NCBI GenBank assembly: GCA_030685235.1 | Contig: MU839229.1 | Coordinates: 1 to 64,000, forward strand | Length of the DNA stretch: 64,000 nt | Direction: 5' to 3' | Origin: Copromyces sp. CBS 386.78 | Taxonomy: Eukaryota; Ascomycota; Sordariomycetes; Sordariales; Sordariaceae | Part shown: piece by piece, positions 1-57,100 of the stretch | Position numbering within the stretch: position 1 is the first letter of the stretch | How the letters are laid out: every line of letters starts with the position of its first letter | Notes under the pieces: generated by a model | Seen by the model: only the letters and a program-made list of their open reading frames with translations | The model's database searches: none | What the model was told of the DNA's origin: nothing | Translations under genes and position numbers: made by a program

Positions 1-124
1 AAAATAAAAATAAAAATAAAAATAAAAATAAAAATAAAAATAAAAATAAAAATAAAAATAAAAATAAAAATAAAAATAAAAATAAAAATAAAAAGTAAAA
101 ATAAAAATAAAAATAAAAATAAAT
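1..124 (+). repeat. (AAAAAT)n hexamer array
   Basis: About twenty near-perfect AAAAAT units with one AAAAG variant near position 94. The same array recurs inside B1 (31106-31192) and, inverted, in B3 (36427-36575), so it is an internal part of the Helentron-like elements and not an independent microsatellite. Confidence 0.9.
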
Positions 125-345
125 AAAAAACTAAATGTAAATATAATGAAAAAATGAAAAGGCAAAAAAAGAAAAATAAAGGAAAAATAAAGAAAAAATA
201 TAAGAAAAATAAAAGAAAAATAAAAGAAAAATAAAAGAAAAATAAAAAGAAAAAGAAAAAGAAAAAGAAAAAGAAAAAGAAAAAGAGAAAGAAAAAGAAA
301 AAGAAATAAAAAAATAAAAAGAAAAGAAATCCAAAAAGCAAATAA
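125..345 (+). repeat. Purine-only low-complexity tract (AAAAAG/AAAAAT)
   Basis: A run of AAAAAG, AAAGAAAA and similar units with almost no pyrimidine but T. The complementary strand gives a spurious Phe/Ser open frame. I see no gene here. Confidence 0.85.
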
Positions 346-445
346 AATAAAAAATATATATATATAAAATCTCCTAGCTTGGGCAGAATGGTGTTTCACT
401 GCCTCCCTCGGGCATATCCAGCTCCGCCCAAGGAAAGACTATTTT

Positions 446-2727: not shown

Positions 2728-2774
2728 AACATCGTCTTCCGGCGCGAGGCGGGAAGAATTTACTGAAGCGCAGC
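2728..2774 (-). mobile_element. Orphan 3' terminus of a B-type Helentron-like element
   Basis: 47 bases matching the right-hand end of B1 and B3: AACATCGTCTTCC, a GC-rich hairpin, then the inner inverted repeat ending AAGCGCAGC. Instead of the rest of B, gypsy G2 follows directly. It sits exactly at the G1/G2 junction, so it marks either a deletion between two B insertions or a captured host segment. Confidence 0.8.
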
Positions 2775-6524: not shown

Positions 6525-7249
6525 AAGAATGTCTTTTCGCACCGTAATAAATGTCTTCATACACTGTAGCCCCACCCACTTACACCCTTCCCGCGCGCTA
6601 ATACATACCAAAAATTTTAAACTAATTAAATCGCTCGCATCCAAATCGCGGTCTACCCTCTACTTCCCTATTATATTCTTTTATAAAACGTTACGTATCT
6701 AGCCCAAATATACGCCCGGCACGGTCGTACATTATATTTAATTGTACTACTCTTAGTACAATAAATTAAATGCGATTAAATACAATTGATTAAGTACGAT
6801 TGATTGAGTACGATTAATAACGATTATTGAAACGCCCATCCTTCTACTGTGGAGGCGCTGAGGTTGGGCTCACCAAAGGTGTTACGAAAGAATACGCACT
6901 AAAGGTCGCGCGGTCCGTGAGCCCACCGAAGCGACGAAATTGGAAGGAGCGGCGGTTCTGTCTATCCGGGTCCAATGTACAGAAAATTCCACGTATCGCC
7001 AAGACTACCCCTATCCTAAAAAGGAAGATTTATAGGTCTTAAAATATAGTTTGAATAGTACGGACAGAAATTTCGACAAATATGCTTTTGGATCAACACT
7101 ATGCCTCAATGAAAGAATGCATCCAAATAAAAAAACAGTCAAAATGTTCGCCTCAATTATGCGGTCATTTTGGCACTTTTTATATCGTGGTACGAGGTTT
7201 GGTGGTTGAGAAAAATTGAAAAGAAGAGTTTTTTTTTGGAATGTGACTG

Positions 7250-7310
7250 TGAATGCGACCGCGGTGAATGCGACCGCGGTGAATGCGACCGCGGTGAATA
7301 CGACCGTGGA
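7250..7310 (+). repeat. GAATGCGACCGCGGT 15-mer tandem array
   Basis: Four or so tandem copies of GAATGCGACCGCGGT inside A1. A3 has an inverted, more diverged version (about 35820-35910). The CCGCGG core is palindromic. It encodes a spurious Ser-His-Pro-Arg repeat on the minus strand. Confidence 0.85.
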
Positions 7311-7644
7311 TAGCCGGGCGGCCGTAGATAAGCCGTGGATAGCCGGGCGACGGTTGATCCTCGAGGTTTAAAATGATTTGAGTTTTTTTTCTTTACTAAT
7401 AACCCTAACCCTGAAAATAAGAAGGATACCAAAATGACCGCCATTTCTTGGCGGTTATTTTGCACCCGGCCAGAGGTCCGTGCGCCCTCTATTTAACGAG
7501 AAATCTTGATTTAAAAAAATCTGACAGATAGTCTTTAAGAAAAAAAATTAAAAAATAAAAAAATAAAAAATAATGATAATAATCATAATAATAATAATAA
7601 TAATAATATATAAATAAAATATATAAAAGATATAAGTTTCTTAA

Positions 7645-7670
7645 TAAAGGCCACGAAAACGTGGCCTTTA
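7645..7670. other. Perfect 11 bp stem-loop in A1
   Basis: TAAAGGCCACG, loop AAAA, CGTGGCCTTTA. The stem is fully complementary. No T-tract follows it on either side, so a bacterial-type terminator reading does not apply. Its role is unknown. Confidence 0.8.
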
Positions 7671-8045
7671 GTAAGGGAATAATTTCAATTCTAAAAGATT
7701 TAATAAATAAGTATCTTAGAAGATGGGCGTTTCACTGCCTCCCTCGGGCATATCCAGCTCCGCCCAAGGGAATACTATTTTTAAATATTAACGACTATTA
7801 ACGGCTATTAGTAATACGTATATTATATAAAGGTAAATAATAGATTGAAATTTGGGAATTTGGCGGGCGCGGTATAGTTTGCTGACGCTAAGAATAGGAG
7901 CGTAGAGATTTAGAATAGATGCGAACGATTTGTTTGGCTCAAAATTTTTAGTATGTATTAGCGTACCTTGGCGCGCGGGAGGGGTGGGGCGGCGGTAGGG
8001 CTACGGTGTCGGAAGACATTTATTACAGTGCGAAAAGACATTCTC

Positions 8046-29949: not shown

Positions 29950-30947
29950 GTAAATATAGGGAAGATTATACTTAGTAATGAAAGAATAATCGATAAATAT
30001 AAATATAGAATATTTATTATTAATAAGGGAAAAGTAATAGAGGAAAACGCTTAAAAATTCATCAATAGAGTAAATAAACTTTAAAAGACTAGGGAAAATA
30101 TAAAAAGAATATTAATAGATTATTATTAACTATATATTAATACTTTTCTACCTACATTAACCGATAAATTACCCCCAAACCGGTTTTACAATTATAAAAT
30201 CAAACTTAAAATAAAAGAGCAAGTACTATACGCTAAACTTAAACCGATATCACCTATCAAAACTACTATTATTAAAAAATAAATTAACAAAAACTTTAAA
30301 AAGAAATTCATCCATCCCTTCCGATCCGCCGCTACTTCGCCTATCCTATTAATAAAAAAACCGGGCGGGAGAGTCCGTATTTACATTAACTACTATAATA
30401 TTAATTTAACGTTACTTTAAAAATATAATACTTATTACCGTTAATTAGAGAAACCCTTAATATTATTTATAAAGTGAAAATCTTTATAAAGTTCGCTATT
30501 ATCTTTACGTTCAATAAAATACGGATAAAGGAGGACTATAATTGATTTACCGTATTTATTACTCGCTTTAAACTTTTTAAATCCTTAATATACCCATTTA
30601 AATTATAAGGGGCGCCGGGGACGTTCTAGAATTATATTAACAATATTTTTAAAGCGCAGCTGTTATGGTCAGAGAATGGAGTGTTTACACGAAGTGAGCG
30701 AGCATAGCGGAGCTTCTCTATAATGGGGGCGATACCCATGTAAGTTCTTCGTGCTGTGATTGGTCCGTCGAATATGGATTTCTCAACTGGGATTGGTTAG
30801 AATTTTTCGTAGCCCGTACACGCAACACGTTCCTATCATTAGTCAGAACTTGAACTTTTGCGCCTATAACAGTGGACGCACGGGGGTCCCGGGGGTATCC
30901 CCCGGGTTTACGCACGTGATAGTAGACGTACGAGGGTGTCCCCCGGG

Positions 30948-30971
30948 TAGGGTTATTAGTAAATAACCCTA
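30948..30971. other. Perfect 10 bp palindromic stem with telomere-like arm
   Basis: TAGGGTTATT, loop AGTA, AATAACCCTA, leading straight into a second CCCTAA unit. Confidence 0.8.
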
Positions 30972-31107
30972 ACCCTAAAAATAAAAAGGACACCAAAATA
31001 ATTAGCTGAAGATAGCGGTCATCTTGAACCTAGTTAGAGGTCCGTGCGCCCTCTAATTAAGGAGATACCTTAGTTTAAAAAAATTTGCCGAATGGGTCTT
31101 GGGAAAG

Positions 31108-31138
<31 letters not shown>

Positions 31139-31319
31139 TAAAAATAAAAATAAAGTTAAAAATAAAAATAAAAATAAAAATAAAAATAAAAATTAAATAA
31201 TTTAAAAAAAACGTAAAGATAAAATATCTCGGAGGAATACCTTGAAATAAGATAATTTAAATAACTTAGAAAAAGAATTTCAAATTAAAATACCTTAAGG
31301 GTACTAGAATTCAAATATA

Positions 31320-31645
31320 TAATAACTTATAGTATAAAAAGTAGTAATTTACTATAGAATCCAATTTAGTATTTATATTAGAGTATTAAAATTTTATTAT
31401 TTATTATAGAATCTAGCTTATTATTTACAATAGACTATTAAAATTTTAATATTTATGGTAAATAGAATCCAGTTTATCATTTATAGTAGACCGTTAAAAT
31501 TTTAACGTTTATAATAAGTAGAATCCAACTTATAATTTACAGTTGACCGTCAAAACTTTAACGTTTACAATAAGTAGAATCCAGCTTATTATTTACAGTA
31601 GACCGTCAAAATTTTAACGTTTATAGTAGGTGAAATTTAACTCTA
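31320..31645 (-). repeat. 56 bp satellite array in B1
   Basis: About five to six degenerate units with the landmarks CTGGATTCTA, CTATAAACGTTAAAATTTT and GACGGTCTAC (read on the minus strand). It matches the longer array of B3 at 35090-35490. There are no unique spacers between units, so it is not CRISPR. Confidence 0.88.
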
Positions 31646-31779
31646 GACTTATAACAGCTGCGCTTTAGTAAATTCTTCCCGCCTTGCGCCGGAAGACGAT
31701 GTTATATAATATCTTTAATATGTACACTACTACTTACCTCGACAATATTCTCGTTTATTTAAAGAATAAAAAAAATTAT

Positions 31780-32698
31780 TGAAACGCCCATCCTTCTACT
31801 GTAGAGGCGCTGAGGTTGGGCTCACCAAAGGTATTATAGAAGAACCGCACCAAAGGTCGTAGTCTGTAAGCCTACCGTGGCGCCGAAATTAGAAGGAGCG
31901 GCGGTTCTGTCTATAATAATCCGAATACAGATAATTGCGGAATTTATATTCCCAATCGGGAAATTCTGCAACTCAGCTGAATTCGAAGCCCGTACATCAA
32001 ATTCTCCCGGCAATACCTCTTCTCAACGAAACGATGTATCCAAATAAAATAACCTACAAAATATTCGCCTCAATTAGGCGGTTATTTTGATACCAGTCAT
32101 TCTTTTTTCCAATCTTTAGTTATTGAGAAAAATCGAAAAGAAGGTTTTTTTTCCAGAATGCGACCGTAGTTCAAATAACTAACTGTTTTTTTCTTAACCA
32201 AAAACCCTAACCCTGAGAAACCTTTGGAACCAAATTTTGAAAAAGACCACGTTTTTTTCTTCACTAATAACCCTGACCCTAAAAATTAAAAGGAGACTAA
32301 AATGATAAGAAAGAAATGGCGGTCATTTTGCACCCGGGTAAAGGTCCGTGCGCCCTCTAATTAAGGGTAAATCTTAGTTTAAAAAAACTTAACAAATGGG
32401 TCTTTTTAAGAATAAAAATATTAATAAATACGTCTTTTTAAAAATAAAATATCAAAGGATAATACTAACCCTACAAAAACAATATCGAAATGATCAGAAT
32501 AAAACGGCGGTTATTATACAATCGGCTAGGAGTCTACACACCTTACAATGAAAAAGAAATCTTAATTTAAAATTTAATTTAAATGAATTTTTAAAACAAA
32601 AATAGAATAAAAATATTTCTTCATAAAATATTTGGATTTCTGGGCGTTTCACTGTCTTCCTTAGACATATCCAGCTCCGCCTAAGGAAAGACTATATT
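31780..32698 (+). mobile_element. Helentron-like element A2, 919 bp
   Basis: TGAAACGCCCATCC start; inner inverted copy, here TCTGGGCGTTTCA; hairpin; and GACTATATT end (GACTATGTT type). Joining its flanks (AATTAT plus ATAAAG) restores the gypsy frame K-N-Y-I-K-Y-V seen in G1, with no target duplication. It contains two telomere-like motifs (near 32205 and 32271) and three CAAAATG...CATTTTG-type inverted repeats. No conserved coding frame. Confidence 0.8.
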
Positions 32699-33248
32699 AT
32701 AAAGTACGTTAATAAAGTCCTATAAAGGATAATTAATACGAGCTTATAAATTAATATTAATAAATACGAATTCTATACGAAATAAACTAAATATTTAAAG
32801 CTTATTATCACCCTTAAAAATATCAAAATAAACCTGGAAAAATAATAGCAATTATTTTATAGGAGGCTCTGAATATTAAGAGGGCGCTATAATATTTCTT
32901 AAAATTCGCTAACTTCTATCAATAATTTATTAAATACTTTTCTATCCTAACGGGACCATTATACAAACTAATAAAAAAGACTATTAAAGATTAAAAATAA
33001 GAAGATTAATACTAACGTTCTTTCGACGCGCTTAAAAGAATTTTTACTAGCGGGCTAGTATTAAATATTTACAGTTAATTTAAATAAATAATTATATAAA
33101 TAAACACCATAAATTAAACTTATAGAGGCATTCTCTCTTAATATAACGAAGACAAGGTATTACAACCAATAACTTACTTTAATTAAAAATATTCGTCAGC
33201 GGAATATAATTACAATATCTACAATAAAAAACTATTCGCTATTATTAA

Positions 33249-33661
33249 GAGAATGTCTTTTCGCACCGTAGCAAATGTCTTTTCGCACCGTTATCAAAAA
33301 TACCACCAAGTATAACTTTACCAAACAACAAGTTGTCAGTATGAAGATAATATCAGAATTTTTGTAATTTTCTACTCTATTTTATAGTCCAATTGCTATA
33401 AATACATTTATCTAAAGGAAAGACTCAATTCAAATATTCTAAATCTAAAGTAAATAAATAGTTTTTTCTTCTTTTATTGTATACTAAGGGCTATAGAGGG
33501 CGCCTAAATACGCCCAACACATCATATTATACAAGAAAAATAAATAAAAATTCCGATGTACTTTTTATATGCTACGGCCTTAATTTGGCTAAGTTACCTC
33601 TAAAAGCCTTTTTTAATTACGGTGCGAAAAGACATTTGCTACGGTGCGAAAAGACTTTCTC
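33249..33661. mobile_element. hAT-like MITE M33, 413 bp
   Basis: Perfect 8 bp TSD ATTATTAA (33241-33248, 33662-33669). TIR doublet: GTCTTTTCGCACCGTAGC and GTCTTTTCGCACCGTTATC after GAGAA. Its core is nearly the reverse complement of M55 at 55089-55501. Inserted in G3 RNase H. The small frame at 33477-33677 is not a gene. Confidence 0.93.
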
Positions 33662-33969
33662 ATTATTAAAGCGCTAAAGGAATAAAAGTTAGAATTAGAA
33701 AGAATACAATAACCGTTCGAAATCTTAATAGACTACAAAGTATTAAAATTATTTATAGTTAATAAATAATTAATACCGTAGTATATAAAATAATTACAAT
33801 TTTTCTCCCGTTTTAACTTTATTATCTAATACCGACTAGGTTCGCTATAAGTCGGCCCTAATACACTAAACCGTAAACCGAAGGACGTTCCAAAATACGA
33901 AGGTAATAAACGCTTCCTAATAAAGAATAAAATCTTATAAAAAAAAACATTTTCATTAATAAGTCTTAC

Positions 33970-34201
33970 TGTTATAGGGCTGATGCCCGTGGCTGTGTAC
34001 CTGGCAATCGCCAGGCGAACTGCCGTGCCGGCAACCCCTTACCGTACCGGCAACCCCCATAGCCCGTACACTATACGTCCCTTAAAAAGGACAGCTAGCC
34101 AGCCGCCTACTTTATAGGCCCCCTTCCTCTCTTTCTTTCCTCGTAGAAGCTTATTAATTATTTAAACCAATACCTATACTAATTATATTGCACCCCTTAT
34201 A
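33970..34201 (+). mobile_element. 5' LTR of gypsy G5
   Basis: 232 bp, TGTTATAGGGCTGATGCCCG to GCACCCCTTATA (CA to TA by RIP). It is GC-rich and has a perfect small stem CCTGGC-AATC-GCCAGG near the start. It matches the G4 LTR at 50474-50707 in reverse orientation. It inserts into G3. The leader begins TTAAGTTCTACTTCTACC. Confidence 0.85.
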
Positions 34202-35089
34202 TTAAGTTCTACTTCTACCTATATAAGTAGATAGTAAATTCAATAGCGAACACTAGTAAATTCAAAACGGAGCTAATAGTATCGAGTGCAGCATTTACGG
34301 TATTTATTACTATAGTCGGATTTAGCGAAATAGATTTCGACGATATCGAACAGTAGTTTTATAACCCCTAAGGCGGTAGCGAATAATAACCAATAAAAAA
34401 CACTACTACGAACAATAGCTTCGTAAAAGGCCTTATTAAAGTACTAAACGGGAATACTACCCTAGGCAATCGTATTAAATCCCTTCTCTTTAATACTAAT
34501 CCTAACCTAATCCTTATTCTACATTTAAATTTTAGTCCCGCAGACTAAATTCCTACTAACAGAGCCGCAATTAGTATTTTAACTACTACTACCGGAAACC
34601 CCGCTAATTTAAATAACAACAGTCTTAATACCTCTACCTATAAAAAGAAACCCTTCGAATTCCATAAATAAAATAACTAACCTTATACTTTCTAATTCTA
34701 TTTTAATCAACTTATTCAAATATATAATACTAACATTAAGGCAAGCCTCCGTACCGATTACAATACCGTTTAGTCCGAAATCCTCAATACCCTCCTTAAT
34801 AATAAGTAAATATTATTAGAAGGTTTTTAAACCGGTAAAACGATTTATAGAGAAGAAGACCTAATAGATCTATTTAATTAAATTTAAATTATTTTCGGCT
34901 CCTACTAAAACCAAAACATTGCTCTTAATAAATTAGTTCGTATACATTGAAAGGATAAAGAACCTTTTACTACCTTTTTAGCTACCTTCGACGATAAAAT
35001 ATTAAAAGTAAGTAACTAACATCGTCTTCCGGCGCGAGGCGGGAAGAATTTACTAAAGCGCAGCTATTATAGGTCTAGAATTGAATTCT

Positions 35090-35490
35090 ACCTACTGTAA
35101 ACGTTAAAACTTTGACGGTCTACTATAAATAATAAACTAGATTCTACCTATTATAAAAATTAAAATTTTAACAGTCTACTGTAAATAATAAACTGGATTC
35201 TACCTACTATAAACGTTAAAATTTTGACGGTCTACTATAAATAATAAACTGGATTCTACCTATTATAAACGTTAAAAATTTGACGGTCTACTATAAATAA
35301 TAAGCTGGATTCTACTTACTATAAACATTAAAATTTTAACGGTCTACTATAAATAATAAACTGGATTCTACCTACCGTAAACGTTAAAATTTTAACGGTC
35401 TACTATAAATAATAAACTGGATTCTACTTACTATAAATATTAAGATTTTGACGGTCTACTATAAATAATAAGCTGGATTCTATAATAAAT
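35090..35490 (+). repeat. 56 bp satellite array in B3
   Basis: About seven tandem units: CTGGATTCTA, CC/CT-TACTATAAACGT, TAAAATTTTGACGGTC, TACTATAAATAATAAA. Units differ mainly by transitions. It lies next to the 3' terminal hairpin of B3. Confidence 0.93.
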
Positions 35491-35565
35491 AATAAAATTT
35501 TAAAATTCTAATATAAATACTAAATTGGATTCTATAGTAAATAATTACTTTTTATCCTATAAATT

Positions 35566-36286
35566 AACATAGTCTTTCCTTGGGCGGAGCCGGATATGCC
35601 CCAGGAAGACAGTGAAACGCCCATCTTCTAAAATACTTATTTGTTTAATGTTTTAGAATCGAAATTGCTTCCTTACTAGAGGTCCGTGCGGACCTCTAGC
35701 CGGAAATCTTACACTTTTAATTTAATTTTTTTTTTTGAATTTTTTAATTTTTTAAATTCTTTTTTTTAATTTTTTTTTTTTTTTATCTTTACCGACTATC
35801 CACGGTCACATCCTTCACAGTCGCATTTACCACGGTGAGTCGCATTCACCGCCGTCAGATTCACCGCGGTCGGCCGGGATTCACCGCAATCGCATTCACG
35901 GTCGCATTCTAACAAAAAAACTCTTCTTTTCGATTTTTCTCAACCACCAAGCCTCGTACCACGATGTAAAAAGTACCAAAATGACCGCATAATTGAGGCG
36001 AACATTTTGACGGTTTTTTCATTTGGATGCATCTTTTTATTGAGAAGAGGTGCTGCCGAGAGTTTGATGCAAAGGCCTCCCGAGTTTGGCAACTCGATAG
36101 AATTTCCTAATTGGGAATATAGGCTCCGCAATTATTTGCACTCGGATTACTGTAGATAGAACCGCCGCTCCTTCCAATTTCGGCGCTGAGGTGGGCTCAC
36201 GGACCACGACCTTTGGTGCGGTTCTTTCGTAACACCTTTGGTAAGCCCGACCTCAGCGCCTCCACGGTGGAAGGATGGGCGTTTCA
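35566..36286 (-). mobile_element. Helentron-like element A3, 721 bp, nested in B3
   Basis: Minus orientation, TGAAACGCCCATCC at the right and hairpin plus GACTATGTT at the left. B1 provides the empty site: ATATAATAACTTATAG there, ATATAAT plus AATTTATAG here. So it inserted with no target duplication. It contains the perfect palindrome at 35676-35699 and diverged CCGCGGT repeats. Shortest A copy. Confidence 0.82.
35676..35699. other. Perfect 11 bp inverted repeat (CTAGAGGTCCG)
   Basis: CTAGAGGTCCG, loop TG, CGGACCTCTAG. This is the AGAGGTCCGTGCG block of the shared module; here alone it forms a complete palindrome, whereas in other copies (GCGCCCTCT) the right arm is shorter. Confidence 0.85.
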
Positions 36287-36426
36287 ATTATATATTTAAA
36301 TTCTAGTACCCTTAAAGTATTTTAATTTTAAATTTTTTTTCTAAATTATTTAAATTATTTTATTTCTAAGGTATTCCTCCAAGTTATCTTATTTCTATAT
36401 TATTTTTGTAAATTATTTTTGTAAAT

Positions 36427-36524
36427 TATTTTTATTTTTATTTTTATTTTTATTTTTATTTTTATTTTTATTTTTATTTTTATTTTTATTTTTATTTTTA
36501 TTTTTATTTTTATTTTTATTTTTA

Positions 36525-36555
<31 letters not shown>

Positions 36556-36575
36556 TCATTTTTATTTTTATTTTT
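36427..36575 (-). repeat. (AAAAAT)n hexamer array in B3
   Basis: Twenty-odd perfect TTTTTA units on the plus strand, interrupted once by TTTTATTTCA. Confidence 0.93.
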
Positions 36576-39500
36576 CTTATTATTTTACTAAAAACCCATT
36601 TAGTAAATTTTTTAAACTAAGATATCCCCTTACTTAGAGGGCGCACGGACCTCTAGCCGGGTTCAAAATAACCGCTATCTTTCGCTGAACATTTTGGTAT
36701 CCTTTTTATTTTTAAGGTTAAAGTTATTAGTAAAAGGAAAAACTTATCCGGGGGATACCCCCGGGGACCCCCGTACGTCTACCGTTACGTACGTAAAGAT
36801 TACGTGCGTAAAGATTTTTTATTTTTAGGATTAAAATTATTAATAAGAGAAAAAACTTATCCGGGGGATACGCCCGGGGACGCCCGTACGTCTACCGTTA
36901 CGTATATAAAAATTACATACGTAAAAATCACGTACATAAAGATCACGTGCGCGTAAAGCGAGTACGGGCGCCGGGGTACGAAAGTTCTAATTAATAATAA
37001 GAACGGGCTGTAAAAAGTTCTAACTAATCCTAATTGAGGAATCGAAATTTAATGGACTAATTATAGGGCGAAAAACTTATAGGGATTATTAATAAGGGTC
37101 TCGCCCTATTACAGAGAAGCTCCGCTATGCTCGCTCACTTCGTATAAACACTCCATTCTCTAACCATAACAGCTACGCTTCAATAATTAGGAGAACCTTA
37201 CTAAGTTAATTTACTTTAATTATACCCTCAACCGGAAGTTTTATAATAAATTCTTTATAGTAAATCTTCTAAAAAATTACCGCGCCTATATAATTAAAAT
37301 ATAATACTTTATAACTAAATACGAATAGACTTTTAAATTTAAAAAGGACTATTATAAAACTTTTATTCTTTAAAAAAGCGCTCTTAGAATAGCGGTATTT
37401 ACTTTCTTACTTCAAATATTAATATTTAATAATTTAATACTTCTTATTAATAAATTTATTCCTTTTCTTTTTCGATTAATAATTATCCCTTTAATTACAA
37501 TAGTAATACTATTATAGGATTTATTCGAATCGGTACGTTTAATAGAGGTTATAGTAATTAGGGGCGAGGCGGTTTAAATTCGGCTACTTCTTCTAGACGT
37601 ACTAAATAGGTCTTTAATAAGGAGCGTTAGAAGCGTAGGGATAGTAACTTATATTTCCGTTACGGAACTTCTAATTATCGGGTAAATAATTATCCTTATT
37701 TACTTATAATCCTTCCTAATAATAATAATAACGGGGTTTATATTTAAATAATTACTACCGAAGTCCCTCTACTCTTAAAGGACGATAACAAATAAGATTC
37801 CGCTTTTAAATAAGGAAAAAAAATAGTTCCGGAGCGAAGTCGGGCCCCGGAGTTTAAAAATATATTAAATAAAATAGAAGAATTTAAATTAAATGCGTAA
37901 CTAGAAATAGAATTTACATTAATTCTACTTATTATTAACAACTATAATTTATTCTACGTCTTCGTTAATAAGGGTTACTAATATTATACTACAATTAATA
38001 AAAAGATTATTAAAGACCTTTAAATTCTAGTCGTCCCTATTAAATCTTATTATATAAAAGGGGTTTCCGCGGCTATAGAAGGCGCTACTATTTAAGGTCT
38101 TACTTATTTCCTAATAGAAGTAGACGGTTACGTCTATTTAATTTGTATTTATATTATTTTTCTATTAGAATTCCCAATTATTTTAAGGAAACTATAATTT
38201 AAAACTATACGTACTTATTCCGTTCTTTATAAAAAGCGGATATATATAGGTATTATAAATTATTAAATCCTATATATCGGATGAGAATAGATTTTAGACA
38301 CGGAATTTATTAGAAATATTAAGTCTATTATCTACGTAACGGCTATTACCTTTATAAATTATATCCGAAGGATTAAAAAGGAATTTAAAGGTAGGGTAGT
38401 AGAAGAAGTTATTTATACTATAAGTTTAAAGGACGTTGAAAAGGCTTTACGGCCGAAAAACATTTATACCGAAGAATAATTCCGGAAAATAACCTTAAAA
38501 AATATTATAACTGCCTTCCCTTATAAATAAAGTAGGAAGCCGATAAATTTAACCCTTATCGTCCCGGAATTAATTACAAAATTGAAATTAAGAAAAATAA
38601 AAACGGTAAAAAATTACCAATCCCTTTTAATCTATTTTATAATATAACTTACGAGGAATTCCTAATTTTTAAAAAGACTATTAAGGATTTACTAAATAAG
38701 GGTTTTATCTATACTAATAGTTTAAAAGCGGGAGCCCTAATGCTTTTCGTACGGAAGTCGGGCGGCGGACTTCGTTTTTATTATAATTACTATACCCTTA
38801 ATGCTATTATATAAGCAGACCGTTATTCGTTACTACTTATTAGCGAAACGTTCTACGTTTTAAAAAGGGTTAAATAATATACGAAAATTAATATCATATA
38901 AGCGTTCTATAAAATTCGGATAATTACAAGTAAGGAATAGAAAACGGTATTTCGAATACGATATAAATTATTCGAATAATTAGTTATACCCTTTAAGTTA
39001 ATTAGCGTACTAATAATATTCTAACAGTATATTAATTATATTTTTTATAAATATTTTAATAAATTTTATATAACTTATATAAATAATATATTTATTTATA
39101 CTTTGGGTACTAAAGAGGATTATAAAGCTAAAATCTATTTAATATTAAAGAAGTTCCTTAATGTAAATTTTTATTTAGACCTAGATAAATATGAATTTAC
39201 TATTAAGAAGGTTAAATATTTTAATTTTATTATTTAAGTAAGTATTAGAATATAAACTAACTTTGAAAAGGTTAAAGCTATTTTCGAATAGCTTCCCCCT
39301 AATTCCTAGAAGGGCGTTCGCAATTTCCTTAACTTTATTAATTACTATAAAATATTTATACCCCAATTTTCAAAGGTCCTAGCCCCGTTAATAATACTTA
39401 TTAAGAAGGGAATAGCCTTTAAATAAATTAAAGAGTATAAAAGTATTTTCTAATTATTTAAAATACTATTTACGAAGGCCCCAATCCTTATAGAATTTAA

Positions 39501-41289: not shown

Positions 41290-44200
41290 GTCGCGAATAA
41301 ATCGCGCCTACTCTATTTCGATTCTATTTATAGCGGTACTTACCTACCGTTTTAGTAAATAAGCTATTTCCCCTTTACCGCCTTTAATTGAATATTATAA
41401 TAATTAAAATACTATTCTTATACGCCGCTCCTTCTTTTTAAACCGCTTATAATAATCGTCCCTTCCTTATTATTTACTTTTATTTCCGCTTTATTATTAT
41501 CCCTTAAACTTTTATAATTCTATTAAAATTTATATAAATATAAAGGCCACTTCCTTCCTTCTATAAAAATTCTTCTTCGCTACTATTTTTTAAATTTCTC
41601 CTTCTTCTTTATTTAATTAACTTTCAAAATAGCGTCTTCTTCTACTAACCGTATTCCCGACCGTCCTCCTAACTATATATTTAATCCCTTAAGCTTTATA
41701 ATTCGTATTAATTATAATATTATTAAGCGTAATATTAATTTCGTCCGTATAATAGATTCCCTATCCCTTAAACTCCTCCGTTCCCTTACGCCCCCTTCTA
41801 CCCTAACGCCCAAATTCTAATCCCTCGTCCGAATATTAATTTTTAACCCCGTTTTTAACTTTCCTTCCGGCCGGTAAATCCTCTTTATCCTTATATTCGC
41901 CTCCTCTCCTCCCTACTAACTATATTAATTAATACCGTCCGTTATATTTTCTACTTCTATTATAATATAAAATTTGCCGACTATATTTATAATACCCCGT
42001 CCTTTAATATAATTATATTTCGTACGCTCTTCGTAGAATATACTTATTATATTAATACTAAAAGTAAATTTCCTCCTATAATCTTCTTTTCGTTTCCTTC
42101 TCTAATATTCTTCAAAACGCCGGCAAATAGAATACTATTTATCCTATTACTAATACAAAATATATATTAAATATTCGATTAGGTTATTATAATAAATATA
42201 ATACCGTTTAAATTACAGTTATTATTTTATTCCGTTCTTAAAACGATTTTAATCCTTTAATTCATTATTTTTATAACGCTTATATTAATTTCTTTAAAAA
42301 TATATGTAAACGCCTAATAAAAAATAATCTCTTATACGACCCTAATATCTTTCTTCGCTACCGGAATATAAAAGTTAAAAATTATTAGCGTAAAAAATAT
42401 TATGAAATATTTTTAGCCAATTATCTTTCTATTCCCGTTTTCGGCTCTAATAGAGGAAATATTAATACTAATTCCCTAATAGTAATTAATAACCCTATCG
42501 GTCCCCTTCCAACTAACGAAGATTAAATTTATTAGTATTATAAAATTATTAGGAATTAAGAATTAATATTTAATTTATTCCGTAAACTCTTGGCCCGCGA
42601 AGAATATTAATTAATTATTTCGGTACTACCTTCGTAATTAAGTAATTATTATAATTAATATAATTTAATTCCTTTTCTTCCTATTTCTCCCGTACTTTTT
42701 TATTCTAATATTATAATCGAATATATTTATAAATATTATATAAATTTATTATACTACTCTCCCTCTAATTTAATTACTAAATAATATTCGTTTAACTTAC
42801 TAAACTGTAATATTTATAAAAGGATTCTCTTAATTCGGGTTCCGTCGTCTAAATAAATTTAGAATTCTTCTTTCGTCTATAATTAATCGGTCGCTATTAT
42901 CTAATAATCAGCTATCTATAAGTAATTTAGGACGATATACGCAAAAATTTCTTTATTTATTCCGTAAAAGTAAATTAATATTATAATATCCGGAACTTTC
43001 TTCTAGAAGAGGAAAGACCGGAGGCCGATAACTTCCGTCCTTACTTAGGTAAAAAGGGAATTCTTCGCTTTAAATAATAAATATTATTTATTTTCGTTTT
43101 CTAATTATTAGGCTTCCTTTTTTTTTCGCTTCGTACCGATTATATACTATTTTATAGTATTACTATTAAATTTTAAGTTGAAGTTGGCGATAGTAAATTC
43201 GTACTATCGGCCTAATTTAATTGCTACTACCGCTAATTAATAATTATAGCGCAATATTTACTCTCTTATCGTTATTTCTTCCAATTACCTTTTATAATCT
43301 ATAATAATTAATTTTAATACTTGTAACGGGGGTAGTAGCGCTTCTATTTCCGGGGGCGGGCCTATTATAATTATTAGAAATTTCTCCGTTAGTACTTATT
43401 TTTTAATTTATTTAATTTTAATAGTATTACTTTTTAATCTATCGGCGGATAGCCGACCTTTTACTCTCCTTATTTAAATATAGTTAACTACTTAAATTAT
43501 AGTCCTTTAAACGAACCCTACTTAGTTCGTACGGGTAAACTTTTCTTCGAAAATTCTAATTTACTTATTAAAATAGAAGTTAAGTAGCGGATAAAAGGTT
43601 TCTATTTCTAGGTTCTTTATTAGTATAATTTTATACACCCCGGTAATAATTTTTAAATATTTAGTTTAATATTTAGCTAATTTAATCGCTATCCTTCGTA
43701 GTTTATTATAAATTTCGGTCGGTTAATAGAAAATTAATATTTTATATATAATTATATTTTAAATATATTTAATATAAATCTCCTTTATTTATATAAAAGA
43801 ATAACCCTAAATTTTCGCCGCTAATTATATTAATATATTCGTTTACGTAGTTAAATTTTTTTTTACTACTTTTATATATATTTGGTAATTAAATTTCTAA
43901 TGTAGCTAAACCCTAAGGAATTTAATCGATTCCGTTAATTTAAATACGATTTCTTCGATTTAGAAAATTTCCGTTCTTAATTCCTTTATCCGTATAAAAT
44001 ATATAAATTCTGTTTTATTTATTTCGAATTCTATCCCTTTTTCAATTATTTAACCCGAATAAATATCCTATATTATTTAGAACGTCCGATAATTTTCTTC
44101 GGTAATTTTAATTATTATGATAATATTAGTATTATTGGTAAAGCCGATGGTAATTACGTTTTAAATAATAGTTAGCTTATAGAATAATAAAGTAATAAAA

Positions 44201-51417: not shown

Positions 51418-52904
51418 TTATATTTGACCCTTTTTTTAACCCCTATTGTCGCCGCTATTATTCTCTCGCAAGTACGCCCAAAGAGCCTCCCTCTATCGCC
51501 TTGCTTGCGATACCCCGTCGTTTTCGTTACTTAATAATAACCTTTTCGCCGTCGCTCTTATCCCTTAGCGATAGTACCCCTTTCTCTACGTCTCTATTAG
51601 TAAGTTGAAAAAGTCTCTATTACTCTCGCTCCCGCAAATTCTAGCGATACCTCTTTTTCTCGCTTTGCTCGATCTACCTCGTTCGCTTACGATCAAGCCA
51701 GATTTCTGCTGTCCGGACTCCCGTCCTTCTTAATAATAGTACTAAGATCCCGAACGTTCAAGCTCCCCGTAGAAGGATTCGCCTCTTTGCGATATAGGCT
51801 CATCGCCTGCCCTTCGCCGTTGTCCGTTCTTGACGGCAACACCTCGCCTTTAGCGATACGGGTATACCGCCTGCCTTTCGCTCGCTACTACGATATAAGT
51901 TATTCGCCTACCTTTTCGCTTGCTGTCCTTTCCGTTAGATAGTAATACGTTCTTTTGGCCTCTGCCGTCGTAGGTACGCCGCGGTTGACGATGAGGTCCT
52001 TTTGATACTTCGATTACGATTTTGGTAATAAGGAGGAGGAGGAGGAGAGAAGGGAGGTGGTAATAATGCTCTAGTCTACGGAGCATGCTAATTATATAAG
52101 ATGATATTAGTCTATCTCGACCCAGTAGGGGCCCAGACGGTTATAATTTCAAATAATTAAGAGGAGGAGTTTATAGATTGAGTAATTATTGTATCGCTAG
52201 ATGGTAACGCCCTAATAAGACTACGGTGGAGGGAGTGCTAGATTGGGGATTTAAAAGGAGGAGTTTCCGGTAGTTAGGAAGGGCGACGCTATTAAAACGA
52301 CGGAAATGCTGGTTATTTACCGCTTATTAATAGCGTAGTAAGTCCTTATATTGTTTACCCTTTTACATGTAGCCAGTTAGAAGTTGGTGTCTGCTATAAA
52401 ACGCAACCGCAGGAGGGTAGCAAATGTAATATTTCGTAGGTATATTAATTACTAGGGTTATTTTTAGTAAGAAGTTTAGTAGAGTCGCTAATGAAAGATA
52501 GTTCTTATTGGTAGGAGAAGTAGAGCGATACGAAGCATTGGGTGATGGCCGTGATTTAATTATTAATCGGGTATAGATTTACAACGCGGTAGAAGAGGTT
52601 CTTAGATAGGTACGGTCTAAATATGTTCCCTAAGTAAGTTTTGGTGCTTGGGCTATTGGGCGTAGCTTTGTGAGGGTAGGTGCTTGGCGAAGTACTGCTA
52701 ATTTGGGTAGTAAGTAGGTGGTTGTGTAGCGTTTATTTAGGGGTTTAGATAGTGATAATTCTTTTTTGGTGTTGTTGATTCTTCCCCGTACGGTGGGCGT
52801 TTGGTTGGGCGCGGTTGTTGATGGATTTCGTCGTTTTTCGTGTAATTAGCTGTTTGGTGCTTAGTGCGGTGGACCGGTCTCCCTAAGGGGGAGAAGGGGG
52901 GTAA
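51418..52904 (+). other. Interior of the TRIM-like element
   Basis: No recognised domain. Several short frames on both strands (for example minus 51850-52086), none with gypsy motifs. The plus-strand stretch 52400-52850 reads fairly openly (GAWAIGRSFVRVGAWRSTA) and could be a decayed coding relic. The first half is pyrimidine-rich with repeated TAGCGATA. The last 20 bases are the polypurine tract. Confidence 0.5.
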
Positions 52905-53127
52905 TGTTATGGGGTTAGAGCCCTGGGGTTAGACCTGGTTGATACCAGGTCCGTAAAGCCTGCGAAGGCTCTGGTTCGGCTGCCCCGGCCTTGGCACTGC
53001 GGTCCTTAAAACCCTTTTCCAGACTGCACCTTCTGTGCAGTCTTTCCTTCCTTTTCTTCCTTGTCAAATATAGCTTTTCAACCTTACACGACTGCTCGCT
53101 GTGCCTTACTCTTGCAGACCCGTTACA
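52905..53127 (+). repeat. 3' LTR of the TRIM-like element
   Basis: TGTTATGGGGTTAGAGCCC to CAGACCCGTTACA; int act terminal CA. GACCTGG-TTGATA-CCAGGTC stem is perfect here. Confidence 0.95.
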
Positions 53128-54190: not shown

Positions 54191-57100
54191 ATAATTAGAA
54201 AAAGGAAAATTGAGATTAATATTAATTAAGTAATAGAAAATTTATTAAGAAATAACGTTATAAAGGATATTTAGTAAGTTTAAGGCTTTATTCTACTTAA
54301 TTTTAAACTTTTCCTAATATTGTTTATTAATTATTCCCCTTTATTATTTCGTTCTATAATTCCGTAATTAATTAGCTTTATTCCGTTTATAAAATCCTTG
54401 GGAAGAAAATTTTTAACTTATTAAATAATTAGTCCGTTATTAGTATCCGCCGCTCTATATTTACCTTCGAACTTATTAAATACTTTTATTTCTTTAAATT
54501 CTATTAAAGGCTCCTAAGTAGGATTGCGGTACCCCTTTTATTTAACTAAAATTTTATAGATAAGTCCCCCTTTCCTATAGTTAGTAAATACGTAAAGGAT
54601 TTCTTTTATTTATTATTCGAATTCTCTTTCTACTTTTATAATTAGTGGCTAATTATCGGTAAGCCTCTATTCTAGTAGCCGATTTTAAGCTACCTACCGT
54701 AGAAAATTTATATAGAAGACGTTATAGATAGTTCGAAGGAGATTAAAGAATTTTATAACGTATAGAGATAGGACTTTCGAAACTGTGTACTTCGTATATA
54801 ATTAATTTAATTTCTTTTTAAAGTGGTTAATATTATAATTCTTAAGGTTAAACTAGACCTTATCCCCGATTTAGAAACGCTCGGCTAATTAATAATACTA
54901 ATTAGCGAACTTCTTTTACTACTAAACGGCTACCGTTATAATAACTTTTATTATAATTTCTTAACGGATTAGTAGGCTTGCTTTTCGGAAGAGAGGAGCG
55001 GGGGTCCGTTTGTAGGTTTATCGATAATAGAAATTGGTAATTCTACGTCAAATCTGTAAGTAGTAAAGAAGGGGCTTATATTAATTAAGAGAAAGTCTTT
55101 TCGCACCGTCGTAAATGTCTTTTCGCACCGTTATCAAAAAAGGCTTTTAGAGGTAACTTAGCCAAACTAAGGCCGTAGCATATAAAAAGTACATCGAAAT
55201 TTTTATTTATTTTCCTTCTACAATATAATATGTCCGGCGTACCTAGGCGCCCTCTATAGCCCTCAATACACAATAAAAGAAAAAAGAACTATTTATTTAC
55301 TTTAAATTTGGAATATTTATATTGAGTCTTTCCTTTAAGTAGATACGTCTACGGCAACTAGACTATAAAATAGAGTAGAAAATTACAAAAATTCTAGTAC
55401 CATTTTCATACTAACAACTTCTTTTTTAGCAAAGTTATACTTAGTAGTATTTTGGACGACGGTATATAAAGATATTTGCGACGGTGCGAAAAGACTTTCT
55501 CTTAATTAAAGTATTAATACGGTTATTAATAATTAATTGAGCTATTAAATATTATTTATCCTAATTATTTTAAATATAATTAACGACCGTTTAAAAGTAA
55601 GTGTAAATTTCTTAATTTATTTGCTTAGGGCTATTATCGGTTTAAGGGTAATAAATAATATTAAAAAGCCGTTTAATATTAAGGAATTTATAGAACTTCG
55701 CTTAAAAGCGGTTCGTTTAATTAGAATTATAATCGCTAACGATAAATTTAAAAATACTATAATATTTAACGAAGTACTATAAGAACTATTCTATATAAAA
55801 TTCAATATTTATAGACGGTATCGGTTTAAAAATAATGTTTTTACTAAATTAGTCTTTAATAATTTAAAAATAAGTATTACTATTCGAATTTAGGAAGTTT
55901 ATAATAAAATCTATTTAAATAATATTTAATAGGGCGGTATTAACTTTTAGATAGAGAAGCCCCAATCCTTATTTAGGCCCTAATCGGGTTAGGGTTATAC
56001 GTATATATATAATTTTCGAGCGGTTTATTTTAATAAGACCGTTATAATACGCCAACCTTTCGTAAAAGATTGTACTAAACCTAGCTAATTAGTAAATCCC
56101 CTATTTACTAACCTACGTACGTCCCCTATCTTTAGATTTAATTATTTCGAATATGCTTTTTTTATTAACGTAACCTTTATTTAATTAAAATCCTTCTTTA
56201 TAATTAAATTAGTTATAAATACTAGAATAAGCTAGAATTGCTCGTACGTACGTAAATATTAATCGCAAATATTATTCAATTGTAATAATTTATTAACTTT
56301 CTAAAATTCTATAGGATTGCGCGTATCGTATATATTTTAGTTATTTTCATATATATATAATAGTTTCGAAATTACTATATAAATAATAAATTACTACGAA
56401 GTTTTATGTTAAAGCCTATAATATTAGGGCTTAAATAGGGATTAGGGCCTCTCTATCTAAAGGCTAGTACCGCCCTATCAAATACTATTTAAATTTCTCT
56501 ATTAAATTATTCCGAGATTAATAATAATTATAAGAGACCTTATTTTATTTTCTCTAAATTTTTATAAAATTATAAATATAATAATTGTAGAGGAATTATT
56601 AAATATAAACCCTTAGGAACGGCTAATAAAAATATTAAATAAATACTATTATAATACTTTTTCTTTTTAAGTAGCCGAAGATATAAGAATTATAAATAAT
56701 TTAAATAAGAATTATACGGAGGGTATAAATTATTAAAATTAGTCCGAAAAGTTAATAGAATTGGATTTAATATAAATAAGCGTTCTAAAGATTTAAAGGC
56801 GGCCCTAATAATAGAACCGGTTACAGGAATCGATATTATAATCGGCAATTTATATTTTAAATTTTAAAGAAGGGTCGAAGTACTATTTATTATTCTAAAT
56901 TACTATTTTAATTTACTAATATAAAGAGTTTTTAAAGGCCGTTTAATTTTAAAACTATTATAAATCCGGATTTTCAAATACTTTCGCACCCTCCTTCCTA
57001 ATATAAACGATTTAAGAAGTGGAAATATAAAGCGGGCTATAAAATTTATAAACGGAATTTAATATTATTTATAAATCGTAGGATTCGAAATTCTATTGGG

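What the first reader, a model, noticed from the sequence alone, without database searches (positions are those of the whole stretch)
30650..37182. Two related Helentron/Helitron2-like non-autonomous families (A and B) with exact, TSD-free empty sites
Seen: A starts TGAAACGCCC, B starts TGAAGCGCAG. Both have the inverted copy of that start 40-50 bp inside the right end, followed by a hairpin and a common 3' end GAC(T/G)ATGTT. Empty sites are readable: B1 against G1, A2 against G1, A3 against B1, and B3 by frame restoration in gag. All four join with no duplicated target base. Known: asymmetric inverted repeats, 3' hairpin and no TSD are the hallmarks of Helentron/Helitron2. Inference: A and B are mobilised by one unseen Rep-helicase. 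Two families this structured, nested in each other, are unusual.
Basis: partly seen in the sequence, partly recalled or inferred. Interest (0 to 1): 0.82.

Follow-up and report, generated by a model that had tools for sequence, protein, structure and literature searches.

The report
Fungal rolling-circle transposons with fossil drivers
The window holds two families of short jumping DNA pieces, apparently from a fungus, that look moved by the rolling-circle (Helitron2) route, and large decayed elements carrying the matching movement genes lie elsewhere in the same genome, so the kind is known although the families look new.

Summary
A and B have the stated starts, an inverted copy of the start inside the right end, and insertion without a duplication of two or more bases. 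B3's joined flanks match 38 other gypsy copies across the joint, 36 with no net length change. B1, A3 and two further A copies have clean empty sites; A2's is weak. One target T cannot be assigned, so a 1-bp T duplication stays possible. The target is TNAT in 22 of 26 A copies, as published for FoHeli1/2.

The unseen helicase exists, but in two lineages. All 5 R1 Rep loci have B ends on both sides in the right orientation, against 0 of 13 others. For A, one 20.2-kb R2 element (C191:35417-55577) carries A ends, Rep and PIF1; its 5' end was predicted from another contig and found 1 bp off. All 18 Rep matches are broken by stops.

So: a new member of the known fungal Helitron2 kind. Less expected: A copies look less RIPped than their flanks (26 of 26), and many carry a second, covarying hairpin about 109 bp from the 3' end.

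The parts
30650..31703 (+). B1, non-autonomous B element, 1054 bp, inserted in a gypsy-like retroelement
   Evidence: ends; empty sites
30650..30666 (+). B1 5' asymmetric terminal inverted repeat (17 bp)
   Evidence: pairs with 31651-31667
31651..31667 (-). B1 3' inverted copy of the start, ending 36 bp inside the right end
31674..31696 (+). B1 3' hairpin (weak: z -0.72, 51 of 200 shuffles fold as well)
31780..32698 (+). A2, non-autonomous A element, 919 bp
32641..32651 (-). A2 3' inverted copy of the start (11 bp), ending 47 bp inside the right end
32657..32688 (+). place of the A 3' hairpin (10-bp helix of the family) in A2; not every pair is kept in this copy
35018..37182 (-). B3, B element of 2165 bp including nested A3; holds a 56-bp minisatellite
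   Evidence: empty site in 38 other gypsy copies
35566..36286 (-). A3, A element of 721 bp nested in B3
   Evidence: empty sites in B1 and L017
6828..7781 (+). A1, A element of 954 bp outside the reported interval
2728..2774 (-). B0, a solo B 3' end (about 47 bp) without a B body; gypsy-like sequence follows at 2775
   Evidence: (D12)
1..445 (+). right part of an A element cut by the contig start in an A+T microsatellite

Best explanation
A and B are non-autonomous members of two Helitron2-type (fungal FoHeli-like) rolling-circle families. A Rep-PIF1 helicase of the matching lineage (R1 for B, R2 for A) would nick at the 5' end next to a target T, unwind to the 3' hairpin, and insert the strand after T-N-A-T without cutting a staggered target. 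Shown: the ends, the target, the empty sites, and Rep and helicase between the same ends in decayed copies. Inferred: that those proteins moved these short copies, the single-strand and circular steps, and the role of the hairpins.
For: Ends and counts against controls. Five clean empty sites. Base before the element T in 29 of 29 starts; T at -4 in 26 of 26 A and TNAT in 22 of 26 A, the other 4 TNTT (counted by eye). B: 5 of 5 R1 Rep loci have a B 5' end upstream and a B 3' end downstream on the same strand within 60 kb, 4 of 5 with the 5' end within 5.5 kb; 0 of 13 other Rep loci have both, though 2 of 13 have a B 3' end downstream. Compact spans of 13.2 kb (C151) and 13.8 kb (C4) with PIF1 inside; B 3' end 8.0, 8.3 and 8.2 kb after PIF1 in C4, C151 and C48. 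A: 5' end predicted by offset near C191:35418 from L018:2742 and found at 35417; Rep N at 42002, PIF1 at 52497-52907, A 3' end 55577. Both ends of that element share TGAAACGCCCAC; none of the short A copies read here has that variant, most having TGAAACGCCCATC at both ends. A 3' end 2.67 and 2.68 kb after PIF1 in C191 and C17. 3' A hairpin z -3.26, 0 of 200 shuffles (one copy folded), pairs kept in 91.2% of cells. A Y2-like motif is read in 9 of 18 Rep pieces (the motif is recalled, not from a call).
Against: No intact RepHel element was seen; two PIF1 matches, C14 and C19, lie in long open frames (971 and 786 aa) without a Rep match near them and were not examined, probably host helicases. 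The A-R2 link rests on one element read at both ends: of 6 R2 loci only 3 (C191, C81, C193) have an A 3' end downstream in the places listed (103 found, not all listed), at about 13, 11 and 18 kb, and none has an A 5' end within 20 kb upstream (C193 has one at 20.4 kb). The C191 element is 20.2 kb with a nested A copy and perhaps more. In C114 the B 5' end is 37 kb away, and C151 has two B 5' ends upstream (98709 and about 100900). The 5' hairpin of Helitron2 is not better than shuffles and the B 3' hairpin is weak. In one search two of five measures of the A hairpin are within the shuffles. A protein search with the R1 read-through piece gave nothing, so the Rep was not placed among named Helitron2 proteins.
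Confidence: 0.92

Rival explanations
1. One Rep-helicase lineage moves both A and B, the ends being similar enough for cross-mobilisation.
For: A and B share the end pattern GAC(T/G)ATGTT in part of the copies and an internal block of 163 bp at 72-79% (D9); both insert after T in AT-rich DNA.
Against: Each end type sits around a different Rep lineage; R1 and R2 Reps are 38-39% identical in two blocks.
Confidence: 0.12
2. MITEs of a DDE transposon that happen to have short inverted repeats.
For: Short, without long open frames, many copies, with inverted repeats.
Against: One repeat lies 36-47 bp inside the right end; no duplication of 2 or more bases in five insertions; Rep and PIF1 were found between such ends (no DDE search was run).
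Confidence: 0.02
3. The ends are telomeric or subtelomeric repeats, since many A starts lie about 190 bp from contig ends and A and B hold AACCCTAACCCT-like pieces.
For: Places; motifs seen.
Against: Of 15 contig ends read, 13 stop in AAAAAT- or AAT-like microsatellites, one (L010) inside A and one (L014) elsewhere; none shows a telomere array. Interior copies exist. An assembly effect of this kind is reported for FoHeli (PMC5148889, section 8 read).
Confidence: 0.02
4. The same elements, but ending one base earlier and making a 1-bp T duplication.
For: T on both sides of the copies read and one T in the empty sites of A3, B3 and L019.
Against: Cannot be told apart by sequence; a like ambiguity is described for FoHeli1/2 (PMC5148889, section 6 read).
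Confidence: 0.2

Closest known systems
FoHeli1 and FoHeli2, Helitron2-type elements of the Fusarium oxysporum complex (PMC5148889; abstract and sections 6, 7, 8, 10, 13, 16 read)
   Same: Asymmetric inverted repeats with the 3' copy inside the end, end in TTTT for 14 of 29 A copies, insertion after TNAT, ambiguous T, short non-autonomous forms of which one shares only its ends with the autonomous element, nesting, contig breaks; RIP reported for FoHeli1 in F. solani.
   Different: Start TGAA instead of TCAG; 11 of 29 A end TGTT and 4 TATT, B ends ATGTT; autonomous copies 13-20 kb (with insertions) instead of about 5-6 kb; no clear 5' hairpin; extra covarying hairpin in many A.
Helentron/HINE and DINE-1 (PMC4067079; passages read)
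   Same: Subterminal inverted repeats, 3' palindrome, microsatellites inside some copies, no target modification, short forms derived from RepHel elements.
   Different: TT or T-rich target there; a single T in three of five clean empty sites here; endonuclease not looked for.
Helitron2 of PMC3627910 (passages read)
   Same: Short ATIRs, 3' hairpin after the 3' ATIR, 5' terminal T, no TSD in the plain non-autonomous elements.
   Different: 5' hairpin not demonstrated here; target there between TTTT and T/C.

Membership tests
Helitron2 (ATIR group) | Asymmetric terminal inverted repeats, 3' copy subterminal | tested here: met
Helitron2 (ATIR group) | 3' hairpin between 3' ATIR and end | tested here: met
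   A: (0 of 200 shuffles, one copy); B only weakly: (51 of 200)
Helitron2 (ATIR group) | 5' hairpin involving the 5' ATIR | tested here: inconclusive
   six 5' ends folded, z from -0.95 to 1.53, none beyond shuffles
Helitron2 (ATIR group) | No target site duplication | tested here: met
   five clean sites of 14 copies; 1-bp T ambiguity remains
Helitron2 (ATIR group) | Rep-helicase between the same ends | tested here: met
   B. A: (one element read at both ends)
Helitron2 (ATIR group) | RepHel groups with Helitron2 proteins in a tree | not tested
   homology search with the read-through R1 piece found nothing; no tree made
FoHeli1/2 | Insertion after TNAT | tested here: met
   22 of 26 A, the other 4 TNTT; B 2 of 3
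FoHeli1/2 | Starts TCAG (FoHeli1) or T[c/a]AG (FoHeli2) | tested here: not met
   starts TGAA, or TAAA in some copies
Helentron (strict) | TT target | tested here: not met
   single T at the joint in empty sites of A3, B3 and L019; TT or more in B1 and the C191 copy
Helentron (strict) | Endonuclease domain after the helicase | not tested
   only parts of the autonomous copies were read
Canonical Helitron1 | 5' TC, 3' CTRR, A^T target | tested here: not met
   TG or TA start, TNTT end, T before the element

The most novel reading that the evidence does not exclude
A-type ends and short A copies are spared by RIP while their surroundings, and the interior of their own autonomous element, are RIPped. 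Short length, a terminal GC-rich cap or an unusual DNA structure may exempt them, so that the non-autonomous form outlives its drivers; A copies may thus have kept moving after the visible RepHel copies died.
Probability: 0.25. Interest if true: 0.55.

Novelty: new member of a known kind. Interest (0 to 1): 0.36.

Why it matters
It ties two short families to two separate Rep-helicase lineages in one genome, which corrects the one-driver view, and adds strong empty-site evidence for a TNAT target with its unresolved T. The contrast between little-RIPped short copies and RIPped autonomous copies gives a testable case of how non-autonomous elements survive a genome defence.

Tried and rejected
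Telomere reading of the contig-end copies: rejected after reading 15 contig ends. A2 against G1 as a clean empty site: not reproduced in one alignment. First family grouping compared plus strands of unturned loci; loci of the genome search turned out to be in contig orientation, so it was redone with all oriented, which merged two groups into R2. A first reading of minus-strand loci was on the wrong strand and was discarded. No clear A 5' end in C191:35904-44074 on the + strand led to the search further upstream. Protein search with the R1 piece: nothing at E 0.001. The A 3' end after the C40 Rep locus was set aside because two A 5' ends lie just before it. The extra hairpin of A was not seen in the 131 bp read before the 57-bp right end of the C191 element, where only A+T/G-T-rich arms of 6-8 appear. 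Of 30 local A right ends, one (L038) was left out, and 8 that lack the homologous stretch were left out. The length-RIP correlation (rho -0.72, n 14; A only -0.63, n 12) is post hoc and small.
Full report
What is there. The window is contig C151:1-64000 of a 49.8-Mb, 273-contig assembly. It looks fungal: gypsy-like repeats fill much of it, no complete frame of 150 codons is open, and the DNA has the signature of RIP (TpA/ApT 1.30, CpA index 0.41, GC 0.30). The organism was not identified. B1 (30650-31703), A2 (31780-32698) and B3 (35018-37182) with A3 (35566-36286) nested inside lie in gypsy-like sequence; A1 (6828-7781), a solo B 3' end (2728-2774) and a cut A (1-445) lie outside the reported interval.

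More than chance. Genome-wide there are 103 A 3' ends, 49 A 5' ends, 30 B 3' ends and 22 B 5' ends within the stated mismatches, each with 0 matches of the reversed control; the shorter exact A start has 63 matches against 2 of its control. The 12 distinct complete A copies read here are 706-1922 bp; the two complete B copies are 1054 and 2165 bp. Many A starts sit near contig ends because contigs stop in a microsatellite inside A: 13 of 15 contig ends read.

Insertion. The base before the element is T in 29 of 29 starts (26 A, 3 B); A copies have T at -4 in 26 of 26 and TNAT in 22 of 26 (counted by eye). Among 34 A right-end matches 31 end in TT; the other three are an internal look-alike in L022-L024. 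The best empty site is that of B3: its joined flanks match 38 other gypsy copies across the joint, 36 with no net length change. A3, B1, the C191 copy (against L018, 89%) and the C150 copy (L019, against L032, 74%) are clean too. A2 is supported only by copies 65-70% alike, the C123 copy only by a gapped 69% match, and for the rest of the 14 complete copies there was no usable match in what was held. In A3, B3 and L019 the empty site has one T at the joint, so either the element ends in TT with no duplication or it ends in T with a 1-bp duplication. Chellapan and others describe the TNAT target and a like ambiguity of the terminal T for FoHeli1/2 (PMC5148889, section 6 read).

Drivers. PF14214 has 18 matches, all with stops inside. 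Oriented comparison gives families R1 (C151, C114, C4, C172, C141), R2 (C191, C8, C91, C81, C193, C21), R3 (C39, C189, C16, C40), and C74 with C105, and C97. All 5 R1 loci have a B 5' end upstream and a B 3' end downstream on the same strand within 60 kb; none of the 13 others has both, though C81 and C91 have a B 3' end downstream. Two R1 elements are compact, 13.2 kb in C151 (98709 to 85461) and 13.8 kb in C4, with a PIF1 match inside. In C151 a second B 5' end lies at about 100900; multiple 5' termini are described for FoHeli (section 10 read). In C172, C141 and C114 the spans are about 33, 25 and 50 kb, so insertions or chance neighbours must be allowed for.

For A, homology upstream of the R2 Rep in C191 led to L018, where an A-type start stands at 2742 before R2 sequence. 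By offset the matching place in C191 was expected near 35418; the A-type start is at 35417. The right end is at 55577. Rep N (42002-42574) and PIF1 (52497-52907) lie between, and a short A copy is nested at 37081-37882. Both ends carry TGAAACGCCCAC, a variant that none of the short A copies read here has. The first about 200 bp are 74% identical to A3; at the right the last 57 bases agree at 51-55 of 57 positions with six short A copies and the 73 bases before them at only 16-25. C17 repeats the spacing from PIF1 to an A 3' end (2.68 against 2.67 kb), although no Rep was matched there. R1 and R2 read-through Reps are 39% and 38% identical in two blocks. Hence two lineages rather than one. Two PIF1 matches in long open frames (C14, C19) were not examined.

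Structure. The A 3' hairpin of one copy folds far better than shuffles. Over 26 distinct rows of 29 it keeps 91.2% of pairs with 8 cells changed on both sides, beyond all 500 shuffles, but the numbers of doubly changed pairs and of pair types are within the shuffles (160 and 448 of 500), and one of its ten pairs is unpaired in half the rows. A second, GC-rich hairpin about 109 bp from the 3' end is found in 19 of 30 local A right ends. On the 22 right ends that have the homologous stretch (21 distinct) it keeps 94.8% of pairs with 32 cells changed on both sides against a shuffle mean of 11.3, 0 of 500 shuffles reaching it; the numbers of doubly changed pairs (5) and pair types (13) are reached by 155 and 73 of 500. 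Two pairs flip between G-C and C-G. Palindromes can also be made to match by template switching, so this need not be selection. It was not seen before the right end of the C191 element. The 5' hairpin of Helitron2 was not demonstrated.

RIP. In 26 of 26 A copies the first 400 bp have a lower TpA/ApT and a higher CpA index than the flank; 18 of 26 A stretches and 0 of 26 flanks pass both usual no-RIP limits (limits recalled). Some A copies, such as L047, L049 and A2, do look RIPped. C-to-T changes are only mildly commoner at CpA (15.1% against 6.2-11.4% elsewhere). 25 of 26 have another A copy of 80% or more identity over that stretch, so divergence alone is a poor excuse. B1, B3 and the 18 Rep loci are RIPped. 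The first 200 bp of the C191 autonomous element have GC 0.54 and no RIP sign, against GC 0.26-0.31 inside; in L018 the same stretch has GC 0.53 but is partly RIPped by index (1.0, 0.74). Age can explain the short copies but not easily the cap. Length below the RIP limit is the plain explanation; in 14 complete copies longer ones are more RIPped, but B1 at 1054 bp is RIPped and an A of 1266 bp (L038) is not.

Verdict. A new member of a known kind: fungal Helitron2 of the FoHeli type. The paper library was searched for Helentron/Helitron2, Helitron with Fusarium and circular intermediates, Helitron with RIP, HELIANO/Helitron-like elements, and Helitron with palindromes; these exact ends were not searched for in print, so newness of the families is not proven.

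Noticed in passing
window 2728-2774: A solo B 3' end of about 47 bp with gypsy-like sequence directly after the inverted repeat; by eye the left flank does not look like the same gypsy place.
   Followed up: partly
L070 (C151:85380-85560): Two B 3' ends face each other across 34 bp that contain a telomere-like GGGTTAGGGTT.
   Followed up: no
window 30962-31124, 32266-32428, 7398-7560: A and B share a 163-bp internal block with CCCTAACCCTAAAAAT-like sequence, 72-79% identical (D9).
   Followed up: no
A copies, about 109 bp from the 3' end (e.g. L001:104-146): A 12-bp hairpin with compensating changes, including G-C to C-G flips.
   Followed up: partly
L072 (C191:35417-35620) and L018:2742-2957: GC-rich terminal 200 bp of an otherwise RIPped autonomous element.
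   Followed up: partly
window 33239-33669 and 55081-55511: A 431-bp inverted pair at 86% (I12) inside gypsy sequence, with inverted 'gtgcgaaaagac'-like motifs at both ends: perhaps another short transposon.
   Followed up: no
window 35026-35538: 56-bp minisatellite next to the B 3' end in B3, with a like stretch in B1 (D2, I21, I24).
   Followed up: no
G000:C19:25857-26306 (-): PIF1 match in an open frame of 786 aa without stops; host gene or intact element helicase, not examined.
   Followed up: no
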